64,000 nt of DNA, taken from positions 1-64,000 of the forward strand of contig NZ_BBIV01000028.1 of NCBI RefSeq assembly GCF_000730665.1. The letters run 5' to 3'. The notes below the pieces were generated by a model that ran no database searches, was not told the origin of the DNA, and saw only the letters and a list, made by a program, of their open reading frames with translations. This document shows positions 28,483 to 64,000 of the stretch, in pieces. This DNA is from Pseudomonas plecoglossicida NBRC 103162 = DSM 15088 (GTDB lineage: Bacteria; Pseudomonadota; Gammaproteobacteria; Pseudomonadales; Pseudomonadaceae). Each line of letters starts with the position of its first letter. Positions within the stretch are counted from its first letter, which is position 1. The translations under genes and the position numbers were made by a program.

Positions 28483-28812
28483 CCATCCGATACGGATTCA
28501 GCCGCCCACTAGCGTTTCATGTCCATCTATCGTCGGATCGACGGGTCGCAAGCGCTGCGCCAGTCAGGGCATATTGTCATCAGCGAGCAAAGGCAAGACC
28601 CACGATCTACCTGTATTTCCTGATGTTTCAAAGCATTGGCGGCCGCGACCAACGCTGTGCGAAGTGATACCATGTGCGCTAAACAATCACCGGCCACCCG
28701 TATATGAAATGCTTTCAACGTGCGCTCGCCAATTCTTGAAAGCTCGCCGCCAAAGTCTCTGGTAGACATGTGCAAGGCCTCCATCAGCAAGACTTCAGTG
28801 GCTTCCCAATCT
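28483..28812. other. Intergenic region upstream of the kinase gene
   Basis: About 330 bp with lower GC than its surroundings. No RNA gene or operator was recognised. An antisense open frame crosses it (see findings) but cannot be called a gene with confidence. Confidence 0.4.
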
Positions 28813-55409: not shown

Positions 55410-55718
55410 TCAGGAAGCCGGGTTGATCGGCTTTTCCGGATACCAGGCGTCCAGCAACGGGCTGACTTCGATGGTGGTCAGTTCGTTGCGGCCCTTGAGC
55501 CAGGCTTCGACGGTAGCGCGCTGCTCTTCGCTGACCGAGCCACGGTTGGCCAGGCAGACCAGGCCGAAGTCATCGCCGCCGACGTAGTCCAGGCCATTGG
55601 CATCCATGGCTTCTGCCAGGAAGGCGTCGAGGAAGGCATCGATGGCTTCGTCAGACAGGTCTTCCTTGAAACCCAGGTTCAGTTCGAAACCCAGCTCCTG
55701 GATTTGACTACTTAGCAA
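55410..55718 (-). pseudogene. yggL: yggL, 5' end replaced by the island
   Basis: Intact YggL (DUF469, 50S ribosome-binding) begins with a basic segment and DEFQELGFEL (M-x-x-N-RSRRLRKK in E. coli). Here QELGFELNLGFKEDLSDEAID onward is preserved but the basic segment and about the first 18 codons are gone; the frame runs into island DNA as LSSQI with only a TTG (55718) as start. The join is near 55702. The remaining 95 codons look undamaged, so a shortened protein is possible but would lack the presumed RNA-binding tail. Confidence 0.85.
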
Positions 55719-55734
55719 GCCATGTCATTATTCT
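55704..55734 (+). promoter_or_regulatory. Possible sigma-70 promoter at the island edge
   Basis: TTGACT (55704-55709) starts one base after the yggL/island join; ATTATT (17-nt spacing) or TATTCT (19-nt spacing) follows. It would drive the recombinase operon at 55787. No experimental support. Confidence 0.35.
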
Positions 55735-55786
55735 CTAAAGGCCCACAGAATGCGGCTTACAGACCACATTATCATCTCTAGAAAAA

Positions 55787-58081
55787 ATGACAATTATCAA
55801 AAATACCTCAGCCATCCGCCAACACCCCCTCACCGCCATTGATGGCGAGGTTGGAGACCTGATCCTCCAATCTGCCGAGTCGTTACGTCAGTCGCTCAAT
55901 CTCAAAAGCTTCGTCATCAGGCCTCAACTGATGGCGCTTGAAGCCTACTGCGACGTGATGGGCCATCGGGTCACAATGGACACGCTCCGCTCCCCCGAGA
56001 TTCGGGAAATCCTGGAAGGCTTCACTACCGCAATGGCCGGAGAGGCACTCATCGTCCTGCCGGATAGAGAGCCCATCAAATTTTGCCGCACCCTCTATCA
56101 AGTGCTGAATGAAGCCAGAGCAAAATACCCAGACCACCACCGATTGGAATGGGACTTCCGGACTTTCAAACCAGACCCGGAGGTGTGCATTGCAATCCGA
56201 GCACGCACAAACGAATTTCACGAGTGGTACTGGAAAGGTTGGGACATCCAACAGCCACGGCAGGCAGCTGTATATCTGCGTCTAGCCCAGCTGGTCGTCC
56301 CCTATGGCCGGACTTTTGTACAGGACGTTTACGAAGAGCTGCTGCAGTATTTCCGGAACCGTACGGGCAGATTCCGTAGCGAATGGAACATCCTGTTTGA
56401 CTACCTCGCCAAGCACCACCATTCCTGGCCACTGAGCCGGTTCAAAACGGAGGTGGGACTTAAGCAGTTCATGCAGGAGTTCTCCATTTCCTATTTTAAC
56501 AATGCCAAGATAGCCGGGCTGGACGCTCAGTCTCAGATCAAAAACTGGAACCGATTCCTTAACTCTGTAGAGCAATGCCTCTGCAAGCCAACTATCTGGG
56601 CAAGCATCAGCTCTCCAATTCGACGCCCGCCGCCCGATACCAAGCATGGCTCAGAGACCAAGGTGACGGAAGACGAAGAAGGCACGCTCGTTCAAGAGAA
56701 GTTGCTCACGAACATCCCTTTGCACGTGACCGATGCCGAAGCCGTTGAAATCCTCTTTTTCCACATCAAAAGAGATGTCACGACGGTTCGCAATTGGGCG
56801 ACGGCACAAGCGGCTGACCTCAAATCTCGGTATATGTGGCGAATTGAGCAAGCGAATAAAGGCACTCCGATTGAACAATACGAAGGCAGGGGGCTCTACA
56901 AAACCTATAGCGTGGCTGATGTCTGCGCAACTCTAGAAGACGTTAATTCAAACGTCCCCACTGCGTTTCTCTGCAAGGTATATCAAAACGCGACCAGTTC
57001 GAAGTGCAGCGCGCCGGAACTTGCCAACGCATTAGGATTTGCGGTGGCAGGAAGCTTATTTCCATTCCAGTGCCTGCTTGTGCTTGAGCACCCCGAAATC
57101 ACATCTGAGTTTTTGAAAAGTTTCGAACTGTATAACCAAGACGGTCAGCTGGTCGGATTCGACGAGCAGCAACGGCTACTCATCGGGTACAAAGACCGCA
57201 AACAGCCAGACGTACGAGAGCAGGTCATCGAACTGAATGACCAGTCGTTTGCCATTGTCAAAGACATTATCGCGATCACCAGTTTGGGCCGTCGCACACT
57301 GAAGGCGGAGAAAAACGACGATTGGCGCTACCTCTTCATCACATCCGGGAAGGCCCTAAAGCCCTTCCAGGTAGCAAAGCCGACTCTTTGGAATGACAAC
57401 TCGTTTATCAACAACCGCACCCTGCGGGAACGGTTGCTCAAAGAGTTCAGGCCGCACAGCGATCTTTCAGATGGTGAGCTAGTCGAGCTCATCAAGCGGG
57501 TTCGCCTGACGAAAATCAGGCCTTCCAGGGCGGTGGAAATTTTCATTCAGAGCAAGAGCTCAGAAAAGATGTCCGATGCCTTGGGTCATGAGCACTATTA
57601 CCCGGATCTACTCAGCCACTACCTACCTGACGCCATCCTGGCGTTCATCAAAGCGCGCTGGATCCGGATCTTCCAAAAGGCCCTTGTCTGTGTAGCCATG
57701 GAAGAGAGCCCTCATCTGCTTAGGGTAACCAAATTTACCAGCATCGATGAATTGGACGCCTTCCTTGAAAATCACCGTATCGAGGAGATTCCTTCTGAGG
57801 CGTCCGACCCGAACGCAAAGCGCAACGCGAAGAAGTCAATAGCAGCGAAGCGGTGCTTTCGATTGGCGTTCCTTTCCTGGCCTCCCTGTTGTCACTGGAG
57901 GCCGCAGTAAAGGCAGCCACCAACAGGGCCCGTGTGTGGCAAAGCCGAATACTGGGCATCCTTTGCGGAGAAGATCAAAACGGAAATCACGACCGGGAGA
58001 AAGGCGCCGCTGAAGAAATACCTGGCTACCGCACTTGAAATGGTGGATGCGAAGAAAATGGAGGCGCTGATCTATGCGTAA
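55787..58081 (+). pseudogene. Large recombinase-associated protein, degenerate, frame-disrupted
   Basis: A predicted 764-aa protein beginning MTIIKNTSAIRQH, first of a four-gene recombinase operon. The C-terminal half looks like a degenerate tyrosine recombinase: R578-x-x-R581 (IRPSRAV) in place of H-x-x-R, GH at 600-601 and Y612 (LGHEHYYPDLLSHYLP), with no clear first arginine. It resembles the large proteins placed beside integrases in VPA1269-type islands. The frame is broken near its end: reading shifts after about 57800 (one base short in a C run near 57810) and shifts back at an extra C near 57940. Between these the original frame meets TAA at 57908. The original frame ends at 58081, overlapping the next start by 8 bp. 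Base composition is more AT-rich than the host. Confidence 0.7.
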
Positions 58082-60152
58082 GCTTAAGGCGGTCAAATCC
58101 AGCTATGACTTCCTACAGACGTTTGACCAAGAAAAGGCCTCGGCGCATACCACCGCCCCCTGGTTGCTTAACGATTTCAGTGAAAATGACTGGAAAATGC
58201 AGACCAATCAGAAGGTGCCATTCCATCTCGCATGGAGTGTTCAGCTCTGGGATGGGAGCTTGCTGACTGACGCGAAGAACGACGTGCTGCTGCGTTCGCT
58301 CAAACATCTCCTCATCATCGGCGGCAATGGCATGAATGAAGAGTTTGCGATGCTGGCTCCTAGCAGCAAGCACATGAGGGTCACTTACACCCTAAAGCTC
58401 ATCGACTATCTGTTGATCCATGCCGAGAGCTATGGATTAGTGGAGTTTGGCCTGGGATCTCTCGATGGTGACCACTTAAAGGGCATGCTGAATCACCTAG
58501 CCACTCAGGCAAGATCCGAGGACTCCGTGTATGCCTGGAAAGATCGGGTAACGGCATTTAGCACTTCAGAACTCGGCAAACTCACTCCTTCGGAAGAAGA
58601 GGCGCTATTCAAGAAATATCCCAGCATGTTGGAGGTCAGCGACGACGAGCTAGAGGACTTCTCGCTCGGCATCGAAGCATCGGAGATTCCGAGGGTACGC
58701 GCTGCACTGATGAAAGCGGGTGTGTATTACGGCAATCGCAACCATGGGTTCCGGATCAGCACAAAACAACTGTCGGAGCTGATCTACAGCGATACGCTAC
58801 GAGGCTGTCAAACCCCCAAATCTGCGCTTCACGCACTCAGTTTTTATCCCAATGAGCGGAGCTACCGTCGCGAGTTTCCAGGCGTACGGGTCACGACAGG
58901 CGAGTCCGAGAGGCTGCAGGAAAGCATCTATTTCTACTACCGCTACACCCTGATCGGCAGTGCTGCCCTGGGGACATTGGAGCTACCCTCCCCATCCGAT
59001 ATCGAGACCATCAAAGAGTATGTTCCCGATGTGAACGAGTCCAAACGCTTCAGAAGCGTTCCGTCGGCCAACCTACTTAAGCTGTTCCGCCGAAGCATGG
59101 AGTTTCATGTCGAGAAGGGCAGGATGATCCTGAACGGCTTCGTGAGGGTCGCTGCCTATTGCAAGGCAAAAGGTCTGTCGATGACCCAGCTCCCAGAAGC
59201 CGAATTTCTGAATGTCATCGGCCCGGAACTCGTCAGCCTCGGCGTCAAAAAACTGGGTCTTTCAAGCAACCGCAGAACGAAAAACAGACTCCCGCGTAAA
59301 GGCAGCCGTGAGAAATACTTCAAAGATTTGCGTGCAAACCACGGCTTGATTGAGCTGGTGTACGTGTACCTGGGCAGCATCCAGATGGCCGTCGGTATGC
59401 TCATGGCACGGCGGGTCGACGAACTGGTGACGCTCAAAGCGCGAGATTGCCTCGACGGTAGCAAATCCTGGCTTATCTTCGGCCTAGCAAAGTCGACCCG
59501 CCAAGCGCTCGGCTTGCGGCAGCGTGAGTCTCGCCCTATCGATGCTATCGCGGTTGAAATGATTGAAGAGCTTCGTCGTTTCCAGAAGCTGCTTAAGCTG
59601 CCGGGAATCATCGACGACCTGGGCGACCTGTATGCCACCCCCTCTTCGTTGGGCTACGCGGGCCTGCAGGAGTGCTCAACACATCTCTACAACCGGCACC
59701 TGGATTTCGCTTGCGACTACTTCGAAAGCGATCTGAACGATGACGGCCAGCGTTACTACGTCCGCCAGCATCAGCTCCGGCGCTTCTTTGCCATCATGTT
59801 CTTCTACACCAACAGCTTCGGCGAACTTGACACGCTACGCTGGATGCTCGGGCACCGTGACATCGAACACGTATGGCACTACCTGACCGAGTGCCTGGAA
59901 CCTTCAGACATTCGGGGAGCTGGCGCCCGATATTTCGCTGATCAAGCAAAAAAAGATCGCCTGGAAAACTACCAAAACCTAAAGGACTTGCTGGCTGCCA
60001 AATTTGGTACCACCTCGTTCAAGTTGGTCGATGAGCAGGAGATCGAGTCGTATCTCGAAGCCATGCTGGAAGAGGGTAAAGCCCGGATCGAGCCGCACTT
60101 CTACAACGATGAAAATGGCAAAGCCATGAAAGTCCTCTTCATCGTCAGCTGA
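58074..60152 (+). CDS. Tyrosine recombinase (integrase), 692 aa
   Basis: An unusually large tyrosine recombinase. The C-terminal catalytic domain has R447 (ARRVDELVTLK), H566-x-x-R569 (RQHQLRRFF), H594 (LGHRDIEHVW) and nucleophile Y603, a complete set. The N-terminal 350 residues are helical with no recognised domain. Its ATG overlaps the end of the upstream gene (ATGCGTAA), so translation is coupled. It probably cuts and joins the island ends at the yggL target together with the other recombinases here. Confidence 0.88.
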   Translation: MRKLKAVKSSYDFLQTFDQEKASAHTTAPWLLNDFSENDWKMQTNQKVPFHLAWSVQLWDGSLLTDAKNDVLLRSLKHLLIIGGNGMNEEFAMLAPSSKHMRVTYTLKLIDYLLIHAESYGLVEFGLGSLDGDHLKGMLNHLATQARSEDSVYAWKDRVTAFSTSELGKLTPSEEEALFKKYPSMLEVSDDELEDFSLGIEASEIPRVRAALMKAGVYYGNRNHGFRISTKQLSELIYSDTLRGCQTPKSALHALSFYPNERSYRREFPGVRVTTGESERLQESIYFYYRYTLIGSAALGTLELPSPSDIETIKEYVPDVNESKRFRSVPSANLLKLFRRSMEFHVEKGRMILNGFVRVAAYCKAKGLSMTQLPEAEFLNVIGPELVSLGVKKLGLSSNRRTKNRLPRKGSREKYFKDLRANHGLIELVYVYLGSIQMAVGMLMARRVDELVTLKARDCLDGSKSWLIFGLAKSTRQALGLRQRESRPIDAIAVEMIEELRRFQKLLKLPGIIDDLGDLYATPSSLGYAGLQECSTHLYNRHLDFACDYFESDLNDDGQRYYVRQHQLRRFFAIMFFYTNSFGELDTLRWMLGHRDIEHVWHYLTECLEPSDIRGAGARYFADQAKKDRLENYQNLKDLLAAKFGTTSFKLVDEQEIESYLEAMLEEGKARIEPHFYNDENGKAMKVLFIVS

Positions 60153-60170
60153 AATATCGGGAAAACATCA

Positions 60171-60785
60171 ATGAGCACACTGACTAAACGCGAGCAGATC
60201 GAACAATCCATTGACGGGATCTTTAAGCTTTTGCATGAGATCCGGCGCGAGCCTGGCAGCTATGCCCAGAACGAACAGGTGCTTCACGCCCTCAAGAGTC
60301 AGGGCTACCTGTGCGCGCTGGAGATGGATTTCTGGATCCGGGACGAACAAGTGAAAATCCAGCCAATCAGCCTGAATACGCTCAAGAAGAAGCTGGCGGG
60401 TAATGGCCCTGATCGCGACTTCACTTATTTGGACAAACTACGAACTCATGCCCAGGCCGCCATTGCCAAGTTCAGCGAGGAGCCGCCCGAGCCCAAAAAG
60501 CGTTCGCGAAGCGCCATTGAGAGTCAGATCGAAGATCTCAAAGCCTCAGTCTCCTCACTCCACGCAGTCAACATGGTGCTGGTACAGGCTTTGGAGGTTA
60601 ACCGTAGAGACTTGATCACCATCGCGGACACCGTGAACACTGGGTTACGGCAGAAGCGAATCAATGACGCGATCAATCGGATCATTAAAATTCTTGGGAT
60701 GAACCCTGCCCCATTTGACGACACCTCCGTCCTCTCTATGGAAAAACATCTGAAGCTGGTGCCCAATGACAAAACGAACCGTTGA
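60171..60785 (+). CDS. Coiled-coil accessory protein of the recombinase operon
   Basis: A 204-aa helical protein with no catalytic motif. Residues about 110-175 (ESQIEDLKASVSSLHAVNMVLVQALEVNRRDL) form a likely coiled coil after a basic linker (PPEPKKRSRSAIE). It is placed between the two tyrosine recombinases, 18 bp after the first and overlapping the second by 20 bp. It may be a VPA1267-like accessory factor that bridges recombinases; this is inference from position. Confidence 0.75.
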   Translation: MSTLTKREQIEQSIDGIFKLLHEIRREPGSYAQNEQVLHALKSQGYLCALEMDFWIRDEQVKIQPISLNTLKKKLAGNGPDRDFTYLDKLRTHAQAAIAKFSEEPPEPKKRSRSAIESQIEDLKASVSSLHAVNMVLVQALEVNRRDLITIADTVNTGLRQKRINDAINRIIKILGMNPAPFDDTSVLSMEKHLKLVPNDKTNR

Positions 60786-62184
60786 ATATCCCGAGTCGGG
60801 CCAGCTTTTCACTCCCATTCCGAAGCTGCGGCTCTACGATTATCTGACTCATGGCGAGCTGCATACGCTTGACGGCAGCATGATGCCGTTCATGTCCTGG
60901 CCTGACGGTTCACCGTGCCTGCAAGCTAATGCTTATATGATCAAGCTCAGAATGCAGCCTGGCAGGGGCGGGCATGGCCCGTCGAGGCATGGCACTAAAG
61001 GCGGATCATTTGGGCAGTACGCCGGCCAGATCAGCCACCTGATTCGCTTCTGCTACTACAACAAGCTGAGCTTCATCGCCCTGTCGGATGACGATTTTTG
61101 CGACTTCATCGATGGGCTCCGTCAAGAGAAGAAGCCTGACAACCCTAAACAGCAGAAAAGGAATGAGCGCACCATCACCGGTATTGGCAGACGGTGTCTT
61201 AATTTCCTCAGCCATGTCGCTGAAATGAATGGCCTGCATAACTTCGTGGGGATCAATGGCACCATTTCTATTGTCATGGTGGACGCCATTTATTATCGGA
61301 ATGGTAAAGCCTTCAAACGCTCAAGCGTCCATCATAGGTCGTTCAGGACGCCTTCTGCGAAGAAGACTCGTAAACCGATCGGTGAGGCGACTATCGAAAA
61401 GCTGAGGGATACGATTGATGCTCACTCATCGTCTGAGTTTTTGAGTACTCGCCGGCACTTGATGATCTCTCTATTCGAAGAAATGGGAACTCGAAGAGCT
61501 GAGACCCAGCCCATTACGGTGGCCGAGGTCATTGCCGCCAGCAAAGTGAAATCTCCAACCCTCATCGTCAATACGCTAAAACGTGGAGGCATGGGGATCA
61601 CACGAGAGCTTGAACTGAGTCCTCCCCTGATCGATGAGCTCATGGATTACATTCGCGGCCCCAGACGTACAATCATGAAGAAACACAAAGGTATCCCAGA
61701 CCATGGGTACTTATTCGTCACTGAGCGCGGAGGTCGCCCCTTGGGCATCGACAGCATTACGACGGAGTTTTCTAAGATTCGCAGGTTAGCAGGCATCGAA
61801 GAGCAAGCGTGTGCACATTTGTTCCGACACACCTTTTGCACCAACATTGTGGCCCAGCTCATTGCGGCCACTCAGGCGTTGAGTCCAGATTCGTTTAGGC
61901 AGACGTTGATGACCAACAAGATGCTCGCTGAGTCTGCGATGGCTAAGAGCGGGCACGCCACACTTGAGAGCCTGCTGGACTACGTTGATTCCGCATTCAA
62001 GCAAAAATCCAAGTACCAGCAGATCATTAAGACCGTCGAAGCCGCCAAGACATTTGAAAGCTATGAGAGGCGCAGGAAGCGACTCCGTGATGATTTCAAA
62101 AAGGGCAAGCTCACAAAGGAGCAATACATTGAACGTGATGAACAACTGGATGCAGCTATGGATCGCGACCTCCAAGCTGCATAG
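60766..62184 (+). CDS. Tyrosine recombinase (integrase), 472 aa
   Basis: A 472-aa site-specific recombinase with a full catalytic set: R243 (EEMGTRRAETQP), H351-x-x-R354 (AHLFRHTFC), H397 (KSGHATLESLL) and Y406 (DYVDSAF). The N-terminal part has a core-binding helical region (FGQYAGQISHLIRFCYYN). Start ATG at 60766 lies inside the end of the accessory gene. It is the last gene of the quartet. Confidence 0.88.
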   Translation: MTKRTVEYPESGQLFTPIPKLRLYDYLTHGELHTLDGSMMPFMSWPDGSPCLQANAYMIKLRMQPGRGGHGPSRHGTKGGSFGQYAGQISHLIRFCYYNKLSFIALSDDDFCDFIDGLRQEKKPDNPKQQKRNERTITGIGRRCLNFLSHVAEMNGLHNFVGINGTISIVMVDAIYYRNGKAFKRSSVHHRSFRTPSAKKTRKPIGEATIEKLRDTIDAHSSSEFLSTRRHLMISLFEEMGTRRAETQPITVAEVIAASKVKSPTLIVNTLKRGGMGITRELELSPPLIDELMDYIRGPRRTIMKKHKGIPDHGYLFVTERGGRPLGIDSITTEFSKIRRLAGIEEQACAHLFRHTFCTNIVAQLIAATQALSPDSFRQTLMTNKMLAESAMAKSGHATLESLLDYVDSAFKQKSKYQQIIKTVEAAKTFESYERRRKRLRDDFKKGKLTKEQYIERDEQLDAAMDRDLQAA

Positions 62185-62204
62185 TCTCAGTCAGGAGGAC
62201 AACC

Positions 62205-62239
62205 TGGAGTGCCCCCGAATATGAAATGCTGGCACTCCA
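62205..62239 (+). terminator. Hairpin behind the recombinase operon
   Basis: A 9-bp perfect stem TGGAGTGCC (62205-62213) / GGCACTCCA (62231-62239) with a 17-nt loop, 20 bp past the last recombinase gene. There is no clear T run (TGGTTTCTG follows), so it may be a processed 3' end rather than a classical terminator. Confidence 0.4.
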
Positions 62240-62296
62240 TGGTTTCTGAATCCATTGGGCAATGGCTCTGAGGATTAAAGATGCCTGGCTTGCTAG

Positions 62297-62700
62297 GCTC
62301 TGTACGAAATCCCGAGAAACCTAATCGTCGCTCCTCTAGCGCTGAGATTTTGTAGAGTCACGCGCCATTAACGGTAAGGAAGTCTGTGATGCCAAGGCGC
62401 TACGAACTCACGAACAAGGCCTGGGATGTGGTCTCCGATCTCTTCATCGAAACCCTTGGCCGAGGTCTGCCCCGACTGAGCGACCGGCTGATGCTCGATG
62501 GCGTGCTGTGGGTGCTCTGCTCATGAACAGCCTGGCGAGATATGCCCGAGAGTTTCGGATCTTGGGCAACCCGAGCCGCAGATGGCGCTCGGGCAAAAGA
62601 TTGGCTGAAGAGACTGCCGACCTCGCTCTTGGCTGCAGTCGCGATGACCTGACAGCCAAGATCCACCTGCTCTCGCCGAGCCCTGCCCGACCTGCGCCTG
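62297..62700 (+). pseudogene. IS5-family transposase remnant
   Basis: A reading frame from ATG 62389 to the stop at 62526 encodes MPRRYELTNKAWDVVSDLF and then RLMLDGVLWVLCS, the recognisable N-terminus of an IS5-type transposase. Downstream, in another frame, LGCSRDDLTAKIHLL (about 62625-62675) matches the LGRSRGGLTTKIHLL block. The bases GGCTCTGTACGAAATC at about 62297 could be the left terminal repeat. The element is deleted and frameshifted and cannot move by itself. The remainder up to 62922 holds nothing I recognise. Confidence 0.75.
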
Positions 62701-62922
62701 GCCTCAGGCGCAGTTGTTGTTCGCCATCCTGGTACCCCTCCCCGGGAGGTATCGCCGTCCCCGAGTGGCAAAGTGCGCTAGGGCATTGCACGGTTTAATA
62801 GCAAATTGATAGCGTAGGCACTACTGCGAAATTCAGGCGGCAGACGTGCCCCCCCCCACAGTGCTAGGCAACCCCGTAGCAACGCTGGCAGAAGAAGCTC
62901 AGGGATGAGATGGAGTGTGCGT

Positions 62923-63960
62923 ATGGATAGGCAAGCCCCCGAGTACCTTCTCAACCTGCTCGCACAAGGAGCCTCACTCTGCGCTACAGATCGGGGTCAA
63001 GCGTTCGTTCTTTTCCAGCGAGCATGTGCCCTTCTCTGGCGACTCGATCCCACGGGGAGTCCTATCTCCCCGATCGAGCTGGAGCGCAGGCTTCGAACGC
63101 CCTTGGAGGACTGGTTGCCCGAGTCCGTCAGAGCCGACTATTCAGGCCCCCTTCTCTACTTCGATATCTTCACCCAGACATGCAGTGAAATGCTGCTGGA
63201 GCTTGATGCGAAGGCGGTTTGGGATCGTGTGCAAGAAAGTGTGAATCGGGTCAAGCAGGCATGCCGACTGCGAGCAGACGGTGAATTGCACTACCGAAAT
63301 TTCCGCCTGTTTCTGGTTCAGCATGGTGTGATCTGGCCCGCTCAAGCCAGTGACACCTTCCTGCCCTTGAACCTGTCATTGAGCGAATTTTACGAGCCTA
63401 TTGCGCCGCACCTGTTTCACAACGGGCTCCTATACCTGTGTCCGGAATGCAAGTGGCCAATGAACACCCAGCGGCACGAAGTCAGCTGCGCGTCAGCGTG
63501 GTGCCAGGACAAGAAAAGTCTCTTCGTTCGAAATGGCGATGCCCTGACTAACCGGGTCGACGGAACCGCTTTGAACGGGCAGGCTGTCGATGGCCGGCTG
63601 ATGCTCAAACCAGCGTTGTGGAAGTTTACGCTTCAGCCCGGGCTCATTGAATTCGAGCTCGCTCAGACTCTGGCCGGTATGGGATTCGACGTGCAGCTAT
63701 GGCCAGATGTTGACCGTACAGACCTACGCTTTCGACTGGGGCATACCCACCAGGATATCGATGCCAAGGTCTGGATGTCCGCCTACAGACTTGCCGAGCA
63801 CATCAAGGCGATTCCAACGAGCTCACCTCGATGGATTGTAATCCCGGATTACCAGAAGCAAAGCCTCCCCTTACTCCGAAAACACTGTAACCCCGGCGTG
63901 AGCGTGTACACCCAGAGCCAATGTGTACAGGAGGCGAAGAAACGTGCAGCCCCTTTCTGA
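62923..63960 (+). CDS. PIWI-RE system nuclease-like protein
   Basis: A 345-aa protein with an N-terminal helical domain (residues 1-165), a zinc ribbon C173-x2-C176 ... C189-x4-C194 and a C-terminal restriction-endonuclease fold: E245 (GLIEFELAQTL), D267 (DRTDLRF) and D280-A-K282 (QDIDAKVW), the PD-(D/E)xK pattern. This order matches the nuclease protein (Y domain plus REase) of the prokaryotic PIWI-RE three-gene conflict systems. GGAG precedes the ATG at 62923 by 8 nt; another ATG lies at 62905. The next gene begins inside its 3' end, so an operon continues. The family call is from pattern recognition, not a search. Confidence 0.7.
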   Translation: MDRQAPEYLLNLLAQGASLCATDRGQAFVLFQRACALLWRLDPTGSPISPIELERRLRTPLEDWLPESVRADYSGPLLYFDIFTQTCSEMLLELDAKAVWDRVQESVNRVKQACRLRADGELHYRNFRLFLVQHGVIWPAQASDTFLPLNLSLSEFYEPIAPHLFHNGLLYLCPECKWPMNTQRHEVSCASAWCQDKKSLFVRNGDALTNRVDGTALNGQAVDGRLMLKPALWKFTLQPGLIEFELAQTLAGMGFDVQLWPDVDRTDLRFRLGHTHQDIDAKVWMSAYRLAEHIKAIPTSSPRWIVIPDYQKQSLPLLRKHCNPGVSVYTQSQCVQEAKKRAAPF

Positions 63961-64000
63961 CATCAGCGTCACGCTGTTCCTCGCATTGGCTGCACGCTAT
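63944..64000 (+). CDS. Partial gene downstream of the nuclease (cut by window end)
   Basis: GTG at 63944, preceded by AGGAGG at about 10 nt, opens a frame MQPLSDISVTLFLALAARY that stays open to the window edge. It overlaps the nuclease gene by 17 bp. In PIWI-RE systems the neighbour is usually a DinG-like helicase or the PIWI-RE protein; the visible 19 residues do not decide between them. Confidence 0.55.
   Translation, partial: MQPLSDISVTLFLALAARY

What the first reader, a model, noticed from the sequence alone, without database searches (positions are those of the whole stretch)
62923..64000. Candidate PIWI-RE defence module on a recombinase-driven island
The 345-aa protein combines a helical N-domain, a C4 zinc ribbon (C173, C176, C189, C194) and a PD-(D/E)xK motif (E245, D267, D280-A-K282). 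That combination is characteristic of the nuclease of PIWI-RE three-gene systems, which also contain a DinG-type helicase and a PIWI protein with R and E signature residues. An overlapping gene follows at 63944. PIWI-RE systems are among the least characterised prokaryotic Argonaute relatives, so a complete copy inside a mobile island would be worth study.
Basis: partly seen in the sequence, partly recalled or inferred. Interest (0 to 1): 0.85.

Follow-up and report, generated by a model that had tools for sequence, protein, structure and literature searches.

The report
Complete PIWI-RE system on yggL island
The gene at the window's end is the first of an intact three-gene bacterial Argonaute-like defence system, and it rides on a mobile island that cuts a ribosome-binding-protein gene in two, brings a spare copy of it, and seems to carry a second Argonaute system at its other end.

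Summary
The 345-aa protein is a PIWI-RE nuclease (Pfam pPIWI_RE_REase 1.5e-17; PADLOC PprRE 1.8e-21). The contig continues 13.7 kb past the window and holds the other two genes: a 1030-aa DinG-type helicase (PprDinG 2.6e-249) and a 783-aa PIWI-RE protein (PprPIWI 1.3e-124). Gene order is the published one. The signature R and E are present, and both catalytic aspartates (D525, D610) sit at the numbers shown to be catalytic in P. stutzeri PsPIWI-RE. So the triad is a new member of a known kind, probably active. New is the setting. The island starts at window position 55706, inside codon ~19-20 of yggL, with a four-gene recombinase cassette. Its right end lies on contig C57: a complete spare yggL, then the severed yggL start and the native neighbour. 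Two other genomes show the same architecture. C57 also encodes a SMEK-nuclease/short-pAgo pair and a retron-like pair. C70 and C57 are joined by inference from the split yggL, not by sequence. Guide source and target remain unknown.

The parts
62923..63960 (+). PIWI-RE nuclease gene (345 aa): helical Y-like domain, C4 zinc ribbon (C173/C176/C189/C194), PD-(D/E)xK domain (E243, D267, D280-A-K282)
   Evidence: Pfam PF18154 1.5e-17; PADLOC PprRE 1.8e-21 and pPIWI_RE_Y 5.5e-4; invariant residues in 16 sequences; AF2 model pLDDT 86
63923..64000 (+). start of the DinG-type helicase gene, which continues outside the window to C70:67015 (1030 aa); followed by the PIWI-RE gene C70:67012-69363 (783 aa, 4-bp overlap)
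   Evidence: Walker A G244-K245, DEID and four cysteines C323/C342/C364/C370 invariant in 18 helicases; PIWI D525/D610/R639/E718
55706..64000 (.). left part of the integrated island (continues to the contig end C70:77732; the right end is inferred on contig C57, up to about 28484)
   Evidence: homology to relatives without the island ends at 55705 inside yggL; severed yggL 5' end plus native dacB-like gene on C57; GC drops from about 0.62 to 0.52
55410..55705 (-). yggL remnant, native codons ~19/20-114, cut off from its start codon by the island (mechanical ORF 55410-55718 has a TTG start made by island DNA)
   Evidence: Pfam YggL_50S_bp 8e-26
55787..57910 (+). recombinase cassette gene 1 (707 aa); tyrosine-recombinase-like C-terminus (R..R, GH..Y)
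   Evidence: no Pfam match at 0.001
58074..60152 (+). recombinase cassette gene 2 (692 aa); HQLRR...LGHRDIEHVWHY motif of tyrosine recombinases
   Evidence: homologue annotated 'integrase' in CP136011.1; no Pfam match at 0.001
60171..60785 (+). recombinase cassette gene 3 (204 aa, no Pfam match at 0.001)
   Evidence: conserved in order in the islands of G151 and G005 and in two more distant cassettes
60766..62184 (+). recombinase cassette gene 4 (472 aa), Phage_integrase family
   Evidence: Pfam PF00589 3.9e-9; HLFRHTF box
62389..62526 (+). remnant resembling an IS4/5-family transposase N-terminus in the gap before the triad
   Evidence: Pfam DUF4096 2.1e-4, below the family's cut-off

Best explanation
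This is a complete PIWI-RE restriction triad (nuclease, DinG-type helicase, PIWI-RE) carried as the first cargo of a site-specific integrative island. Shown here: gene order, overlaps, domain content, intact active-site residues, and an island that splits native yggL near codon 19-20 and brings a complete spare yggL at its other end. Inferred: one polycistronic message; the PIWI-RE protein loads short guides and pairs them with complementary nucleic acid, giving an RNA:DNA hybrid; the helicase opens or translocates the target; the PD-(D/E)xK nuclease and the catalytic PIWI cut it. The likely target is invading, actively transcribed or replicating DNA (plasmid, conjugative element or phage). 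The island recombinases moved the system between hosts, and the spare yggL makes up for the damage of integration.
For: Profiles. Catalytic D525 and D610 and the R639/E718 signature at the same numbers as PsPIWI-RE, whose described coding region also ends at base 2352 and whose purified protein does RNA-guided DNA and DNA-guided RNA cleavage. REase active site and zinc ribbon invariant in 16 of 16. Helicase motifs and four cysteines invariant in 18 of 18. MID-PIWI model of a 72%-identical homologue matches Argonautes, Z 17.3, rmsd 4.4, 312 residues. The three genes keep roughly parallel identities across loci. PprPIWI is patchy: 10 of 298 genus genomes, G000 included. Island.
Against: No guide source and no conserved flanking non-coding element was found; outside the genes the window's flanks matched the ten relatives compared only in one 35-bp stretch shared with a single locus. 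The published knockout phenotype concerns ciprofloxacin survival and cell length, which fits a replication or R-loop role as well as defence. The REase model matches solved nucleases only weakly by Foldseek (best E 0.02). The link between contigs C70 and C57 is inferred.
Confidence: 0.75

Rival explanations
1. The triad is a housekeeping-like replication or R-loop clearance device (helicase plus hybrid-specific nucleases) rather than a defence system.
For: Deletion of PsPIWI-RE lowered ciprofloxacin survival about 15-fold and gave filaments. DinG helicases act on R-loops (Burroughs et al., section read).
Against: Patchy distribution, 10 of 298 genomes of the genus; carried on an island; broken or reduced copies in several named genomes; Gabija genes directly behind the triad in several relatives.
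Confidence: 0.2
2. The triad is a three-gene counterpart of DdmDE: PIWI-RE plays the guided Argonaute (DdmE), and helicase plus separate nuclease play DdmD, so the main target is plasmids.
For: In the second-look structural alignment the REase model aligned to 14 DdmD-containing entries over 180-197 residues (REase ~97-345 on DdmD 911-1190, Z 6.5-7.5, rmsd 4.5-5.7), whereas most other nucleases listed align over about 82-110 residues (PspGI, Ecl18kI and one Can2 entry over 133-142). Same parts list: Argonaute-like protein, SF2 helicase, PD-(D/E)xK nuclease (DdmDE as described in passages read).
Against: All DdmD rows have Z below 8, which the tool calls a possibly common arrangement, and the best row is Cdn1 (Z 8.5, rmsd 3.0, 105 residues), not DdmD. 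No sequence-level match of the REase profile to DdmD up to E 10; the helicase profile finds reverse gyrase, CasDinG and DinG among PDB sequences up to E 10, not DdmD. DdmE uses DNA guides and is catalytically inactive; this PIWI keeps its aspartates.
Confidence: 0.25
3. The triad is a decaying passenger with no function in this host.
For: A transposase-like remnant lies just upstream; related triads elsewhere show split, partial or interrupted PIWI genes.
Against: All three frames here are open and every signature and active-site residue checked is intact.
Confidence: 0.07

Closest known systems
PIWI-RE (pPIWI-RE) three-gene systems (Burroughs, Iyer and Aravind 2013, PMC3702460)
   Same: Gene order REase - DinG helicase - PIWI-RE with overlapping termini; X, MID and RNase-H-like domains; Y-like helical domain plus zinc ribbon plus REase; conserved R and E
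   Different: No extra HTH fused to the nuclease; carried directly behind a four-gene recombinase cassette
PsPIWI-RE of Pseudomonas stutzeri DSM4166 (PMC10991935)
   Same: Coding region described up to base 2352, as here; first four bases shared with dinG; catalytic D525 and D610 and R639/E718 at the same numbers
DdmDE plasmid-elimination system
   Same: Argonaute-like protein plus SF2 helicase plus PD-(D/E)xK nuclease; loose structural overlap of the REase with the DdmD C-terminal part
   Different: Nuclease and helicase are separate genes; helicase is DinG-type by sequence; PIWI active site retained
SMEK-APAZ / short pAgo systems (other end of the island)
   Same: C57:24618-26210 SMEK_N 6.6e-44 and PADLOC Aga_REase 1.1e-183; C57:26200-27615 pAgo_I 2.5e-183
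   Different: A separate system; shares only the island with the triad

Membership tests
PIWI-RE three-gene system | REase gene first, then DinG helicase, then PIWI-RE, overlapping or nearly so | tested here: met
   62923-63960, C70:63923-67015, C70:67012-69363
PIWI-RE three-gene system | Conserved arginine and glutamate in the PIWI domain | tested here: met
   R639 and E718, invariant in 10 of 10 and 13 of 13, checked by residue
PIWI-RE three-gene system | X, MID and RNase-H-like domains in the PIWI protein | tested here: met
   Pfam 2.8e-9, 4.5e-13, 3.5e-17, all above cut-off
PIWI-RE three-gene system | Helical domain, zinc ribbon and REase-fold domain in the first protein | tested here: met
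   fold matches to PD-(D/E)xK enzymes are consistent but weak
PIWI-RE three-gene system | DinG-type helicase with cysteine-rich iron-binding region | tested here: met
   PprDinG 2.6e-249; C323, C342, C364, C370 invariant in 18 of 18; iron binding itself not testable
PIWI-RE three-gene system | Large helical insertion in the helicase before the second P-loop domain | not tested
   No helicase model was made
Catalytically active PIWI-RE subset | Aspartates equivalent to D525 and D610 of PsPIWI-RE | tested here: met
   Both present here; one or both are not aspartate in 5 of the 10 genus sequences
Anti-invader defence system | Restriction of phage or plasmid | not testable with these tools
   No experiment
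DdmDE | Helicase and nuclease fused in one protein (DdmD) | tested here: not met
   Separate genes
DdmDE | Nuclease region related to the DdmD C-terminus | tested here: inconclusive
   Z 6.5-7.5, rmsd 4.5-5.7, 180-197 residues, but below Z 8 and no sequence match
Gamma-mobile-trio islands | GMT recombinase proteins | tested here: inconclusive
   No GMT-named NCBIfam model among the matches of the four cassette proteins at E up to 0.01; that such models exist is recalled

The most novel reading that the evidence does not exclude
One yggL-targeted, self-repairing island carries two different Argonaute-superfamily systems, an active-site-intact PIWI-RE triad at its recombinase end and a SMEK-nuclease/short-pAgo pair at its spare-yggL end, with a retron-like pair between. 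The triad would be a three-gene counterpart of DdmDE that destroys competing plasmids or elements, so that a mobile island uses two guided systems in layers to keep rivals out.
Probability: 0.25. Interest if true: 0.75.

Novelty: new member of a known kind. Interest (0 to 1): 0.48.

Why it matters
PIWI-RE systems were described in 2013, but the listings that I saw (30 of 202 papers, 1 of 1, 11 of 11) showed one paper titled as an experimental study of a PIWI-RE protein, and no solved relative of the PIWI profile, of the whole helicase or of the REase turned up by sequence at the limits used. A copy with every active-site residue checked intact, on an integrative island with mapped ends, is a good candidate for a first functional test. 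The island is of interest itself: it breaks a conserved gene and carries a spare copy, the same way in three genomes.

Tried and rejected
A fourth gene of the window's system: the Cauli_VI plus GIY-YIG gene 294 bp downstream (C70:69658-70560) looked like a partner, but tblastn found it in none of 29 other PIWI-RE loci (L013-L041, at least five of them the same contig fetched twice, flanks of limited length). The 9 genomes besides G000 that hold a match to it are not among the 9 besides G000 that hold PprPIWI. I treat it as separate cargo.

Gabija genes behind the triad: one search showed that L024, L028 and L029 resemble each other downstream of PIWI. One search shows why: a GajA-like and a short GajB-like gene follow PIWI within about 80 bp in L024, L028, L029, L035 and L016, and part of the GajA-like gene in L013; PADLOC names them GajA and GajB (two of these loci scanned). 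No match lies in L002, L085 or L086, so this is not part of the window's island as far as it was read.

A guide or promoter RNA: comparison of 600 bp upstream and 700 bp downstream with ten relatives gave no shared non-coding element with the window except 35 bp (83%) shared with L024. Rfam found nothing at gathering score in 47950 bases.

Plasmid carriage: no plasmid record matched the PIWI or GIY-YIG protein at E 1e-5. The helicase has only distant plasmid relatives, 17 records, all under 60% identity, 13 from Streptomyces.

Co-occurrence of PIWI-RE and this short-pAgo subclass: 10 of 298 and 2 of 298 genomes, both together only in G000, the genome under study, so no enrichment can be claimed. 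A Piwi-domain search of the ten PIWI-RE genomes was useless: it missed the known short pAgo of G000.

Relatives of the cassette at about 40% identity have no yggL within the 20 kb that I read in two cases (L080, L081).

Papers: Burroughs 2013, section 6 read whole; P. stutzeri paper, abstract, section 4, first part of section 11 and section 16; passages only from PMC7641849, PMC10810196, PMC12409362, PMC12904381 and PMC12564509. Two DdmD papers are not held. No held paper has yggL together with 'tyrosine recombinase'. One held paper contains both DdmDE and PIWI-RE, as a class name and in a cited title, without linking them in the passages shown.

Full report
OBSERVATION. The window is the first 64000 bases of contig C70 of its genome; the contig has 77732 bases. 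The ORF at 62923-63960 encodes 345 aa (351 aa from an earlier ATG). It matches Pfam pPIWI_RE_REase at 1.5e-17, above the curated cut-off, and PADLOC PprRE at 1.8e-21, with a weak match of its N-terminal part to pPIWI_RE_Y. In an alignment of 16 homologues, its own included, the four zinc-ribbon cysteines and E243, D264, D267, D280, A281 and K282 are invariant.

THE REST OF THE SYSTEM. Beyond the window, in contig coordinates (L002 plus 60000), follow a helicase gene 63923-67015 (1030 aa, PprDinG 2.6e-249) and a PIWI-RE gene 67012-69363 (783 aa, PprPIWI 1.3e-124; Pfam X, MID and RNaseH domains above cut-off). The helicase has Walker A, DEID and four cysteines between them, invariant in 18 of 18 helicases apart from S/T at Walker A position 246. 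The PIWI has D525, D610, R639 and E718. These are the residue numbers given for P. stutzeri PsPIWI-RE, whose described coding region also ends at base 2352 and shares its first four bases with dinG. D525 and D610 were shown there to be needed for cleavage; R639 and E718 were not. Across the ten genus sequences R639 and E718 never vary, while in five of them one or both aspartates are another residue.

STRUCTURE. No PDB sequence matches the PIWI profile at E 0.1, the helicase at 0.01 or the REase at 1; a helicase profile reaches reverse gyrase at 2e-4 over a short motor stretch, and CasDinG at 0.07. An AlphaFold2 model of the REase (pLDDT 86) gives a helix-strand order that fits a PD-(D/E)xK fold. 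Foldseek finds nothing below E 0.001; its ten best rows are nucleases or a DdmDE complex (Can2, FokI, HindIII, Hjc and others). The second-look aligner gives Cdn1 Z 8.5, rmsd 3.0, 105 residues, and 14 DdmD-containing entries at Z 6.5-7.5, rmsd 4.5-5.7, 180-197 residues. Z below 8 is weak by the tool's own note, so this is a lead. A model of the Stutzerimonas xanthomarina PIWI (L022, 72% identical, pLDDT 67 overall) matches Thermus Argonaute at Z 17.3, rmsd 4.4, 312 residues and RsAgo by Foldseek at 4.2e-11.

RELATIVES. The PprPIWI profile rings in 10 of 298 genus genomes, G000 included. The species-level scan returned 20 loci, mainly Pseudomonas and Stutzerimonas. The organism is a Pseudomonas by inference: several unnamed genus genomes have contigs of the same length as named Pseudomonas contigs. 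Where all three genes were found they keep the same order, with identities that fall roughly in parallel. Some copies look damaged, judged from tblastn segments only: the PIWI match of L039 is split by about 5.8 kb; those of L033, L037 and L038 come in two segments; L036 and L041 keep only the C-terminal part. In five loci a GajA-like and a short GajB-like gene follow PIWI directly, and in a sixth part of the GajA-like gene; two of the pairs were scanned and match PADLOC GajA (2e-104, 7.6e-106) and GajB (3.4e-47, 1.1e-49). The window's triad has no such pair.

THE ISLAND. Homology to genomes without the island stops at 55705, inside yggL. On C70, yggL lacks its first ~19 codons. On contig C57 those codons reappear (28485-28542), followed by a dacB-like gene that is the neighbour of intact yggL in G003, G007 and G009. 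Just inside this end lies a complete second yggL (C57:27886-28230, 114 aa). So the element entered yggL, cut off its start, and carries a spare. Two other genomes with close relatives of the recombinase cassette, G151 and G005, show the same three signs: cassette beside truncated yggL, spare full yggL, and a severed 5' end near a dacB-like gene. In the single contig of G005 the two ends are about 145 kb apart; in G151 they are on different contigs. The cassette has four genes: three with tyrosine-recombinase motifs (one supported by Pfam, two by motif only) and a 204-aa protein. A Pseudomonas megaplasmid of 909734 bp holds a 70% homologue of the second protein, annotated integrase, in a four-gene run of the same layout, with type I restriction genes in the same 30-kb stretch; homology of the other three was not tested there. 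Rec692 homologues are in 44 of 298 genus genomes, but only two besides G000 are at 60% identity or more. A motif scan found the recombinase box in none of 29 other PIWI-RE loci, at least five of them the same contig fetched twice; flanks were limited, shorter where contigs end, and this scan can miss recombinases.

OTHER CARGO. After the triad on C70 come a Cauli_VI plus GIY-YIG gene, an FRG-domain gene (PDC-S15) and an AAA_13 gene (PDC-S06). On C57 are a PRTase and a reverse transcriptase that match type III-A retron models, a Mrr_cat nuclease, a KAP NTPase, and next to the spare yggL a SMEK_N protein with a short pAgo. Total island length is at least about 50 kb if C57 is all island up to 28484; what lies between the contigs is unknown, and the last 833 bases of C70 match no other contig.

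MECHANISM. Shown: anatomy and intact residues. From the literature: a relative of the PIWI cleaves DNA with RNA guides and RNA with DNA guides, and the triad was proposed as RNA-dependent restriction. Inferred: guide-directed recognition, helicase opening and nuclease cutting of invading DNA. The rival of a replication or R-loop role is real, because the published knockout changed ciprofloxacin survival.

VERDICT. A true, complete, probably active member of a known kind, in an unusual and well-bounded mobile setting. Interest is moderate because the system class is known; the two-Argonaute island and the possible kinship to DdmDE would raise it.

Noticed in passing
C57:24618-27615 (L085:4618-7615) of the same genome: SMEK_N nuclease-APAZ-like protein plus short pAgo, next to the spare yggL at the island's right end; a match to this pAgo model occurs in only 2 of 298 genus genomes.
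   Followed up: partly
L024:12408-15010, L028:12418-14999, L029:12420-14998, L035:9301-11873, L016:7238-4663, partly L013: A Gabija-like pair (GajA-like ATPase and a short GajB-like helicase) directly behind PIWI-RE on the same strand, in triads whose PIWI proteins differ widely; possibly a recurring five-gene unit.
   Followed up: partly
C57:6340-8941 (L086): PRTase-CE protein and reverse transcriptase matching type III-A retron models; no Rfam RNA found at gathering score.
   Followed up: partly
L002:9658-10560: Protein joining an RNase H1 N-terminal (Cauli_VI) domain to a GIY-YIG nuclease; 83-84% relatives in four genus genomes without a PprPIWI match.
   Followed up: partly
L002:10756-14320: FRG-domain protein (PDC-S15) and AAA_13 ATPase (PDC-S06) on the minus strand, both candidate defence families in PADLOC.
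   Followed up: no
L039, L033, L037, L038, L036, L041: PIWI-RE matches that are split or partial in other Pseudomonas, Stutzerimonas and Azotobacter genomes, suggesting broken copies.
   Followed up: partly
L101 (IMGVR_UViG_2571042114_000001): A 14.4-kb contig in the viral collection encodes a helicase 80% identical to this one.
   Followed up: no
window 62799-62813: 15-bp sequence in a 35-bp stretch (83%) shared with P. cichorii locus L024 at nearly the same distance upstream of the nuclease start; possibly a promoter or operator.
   Followed up: partly
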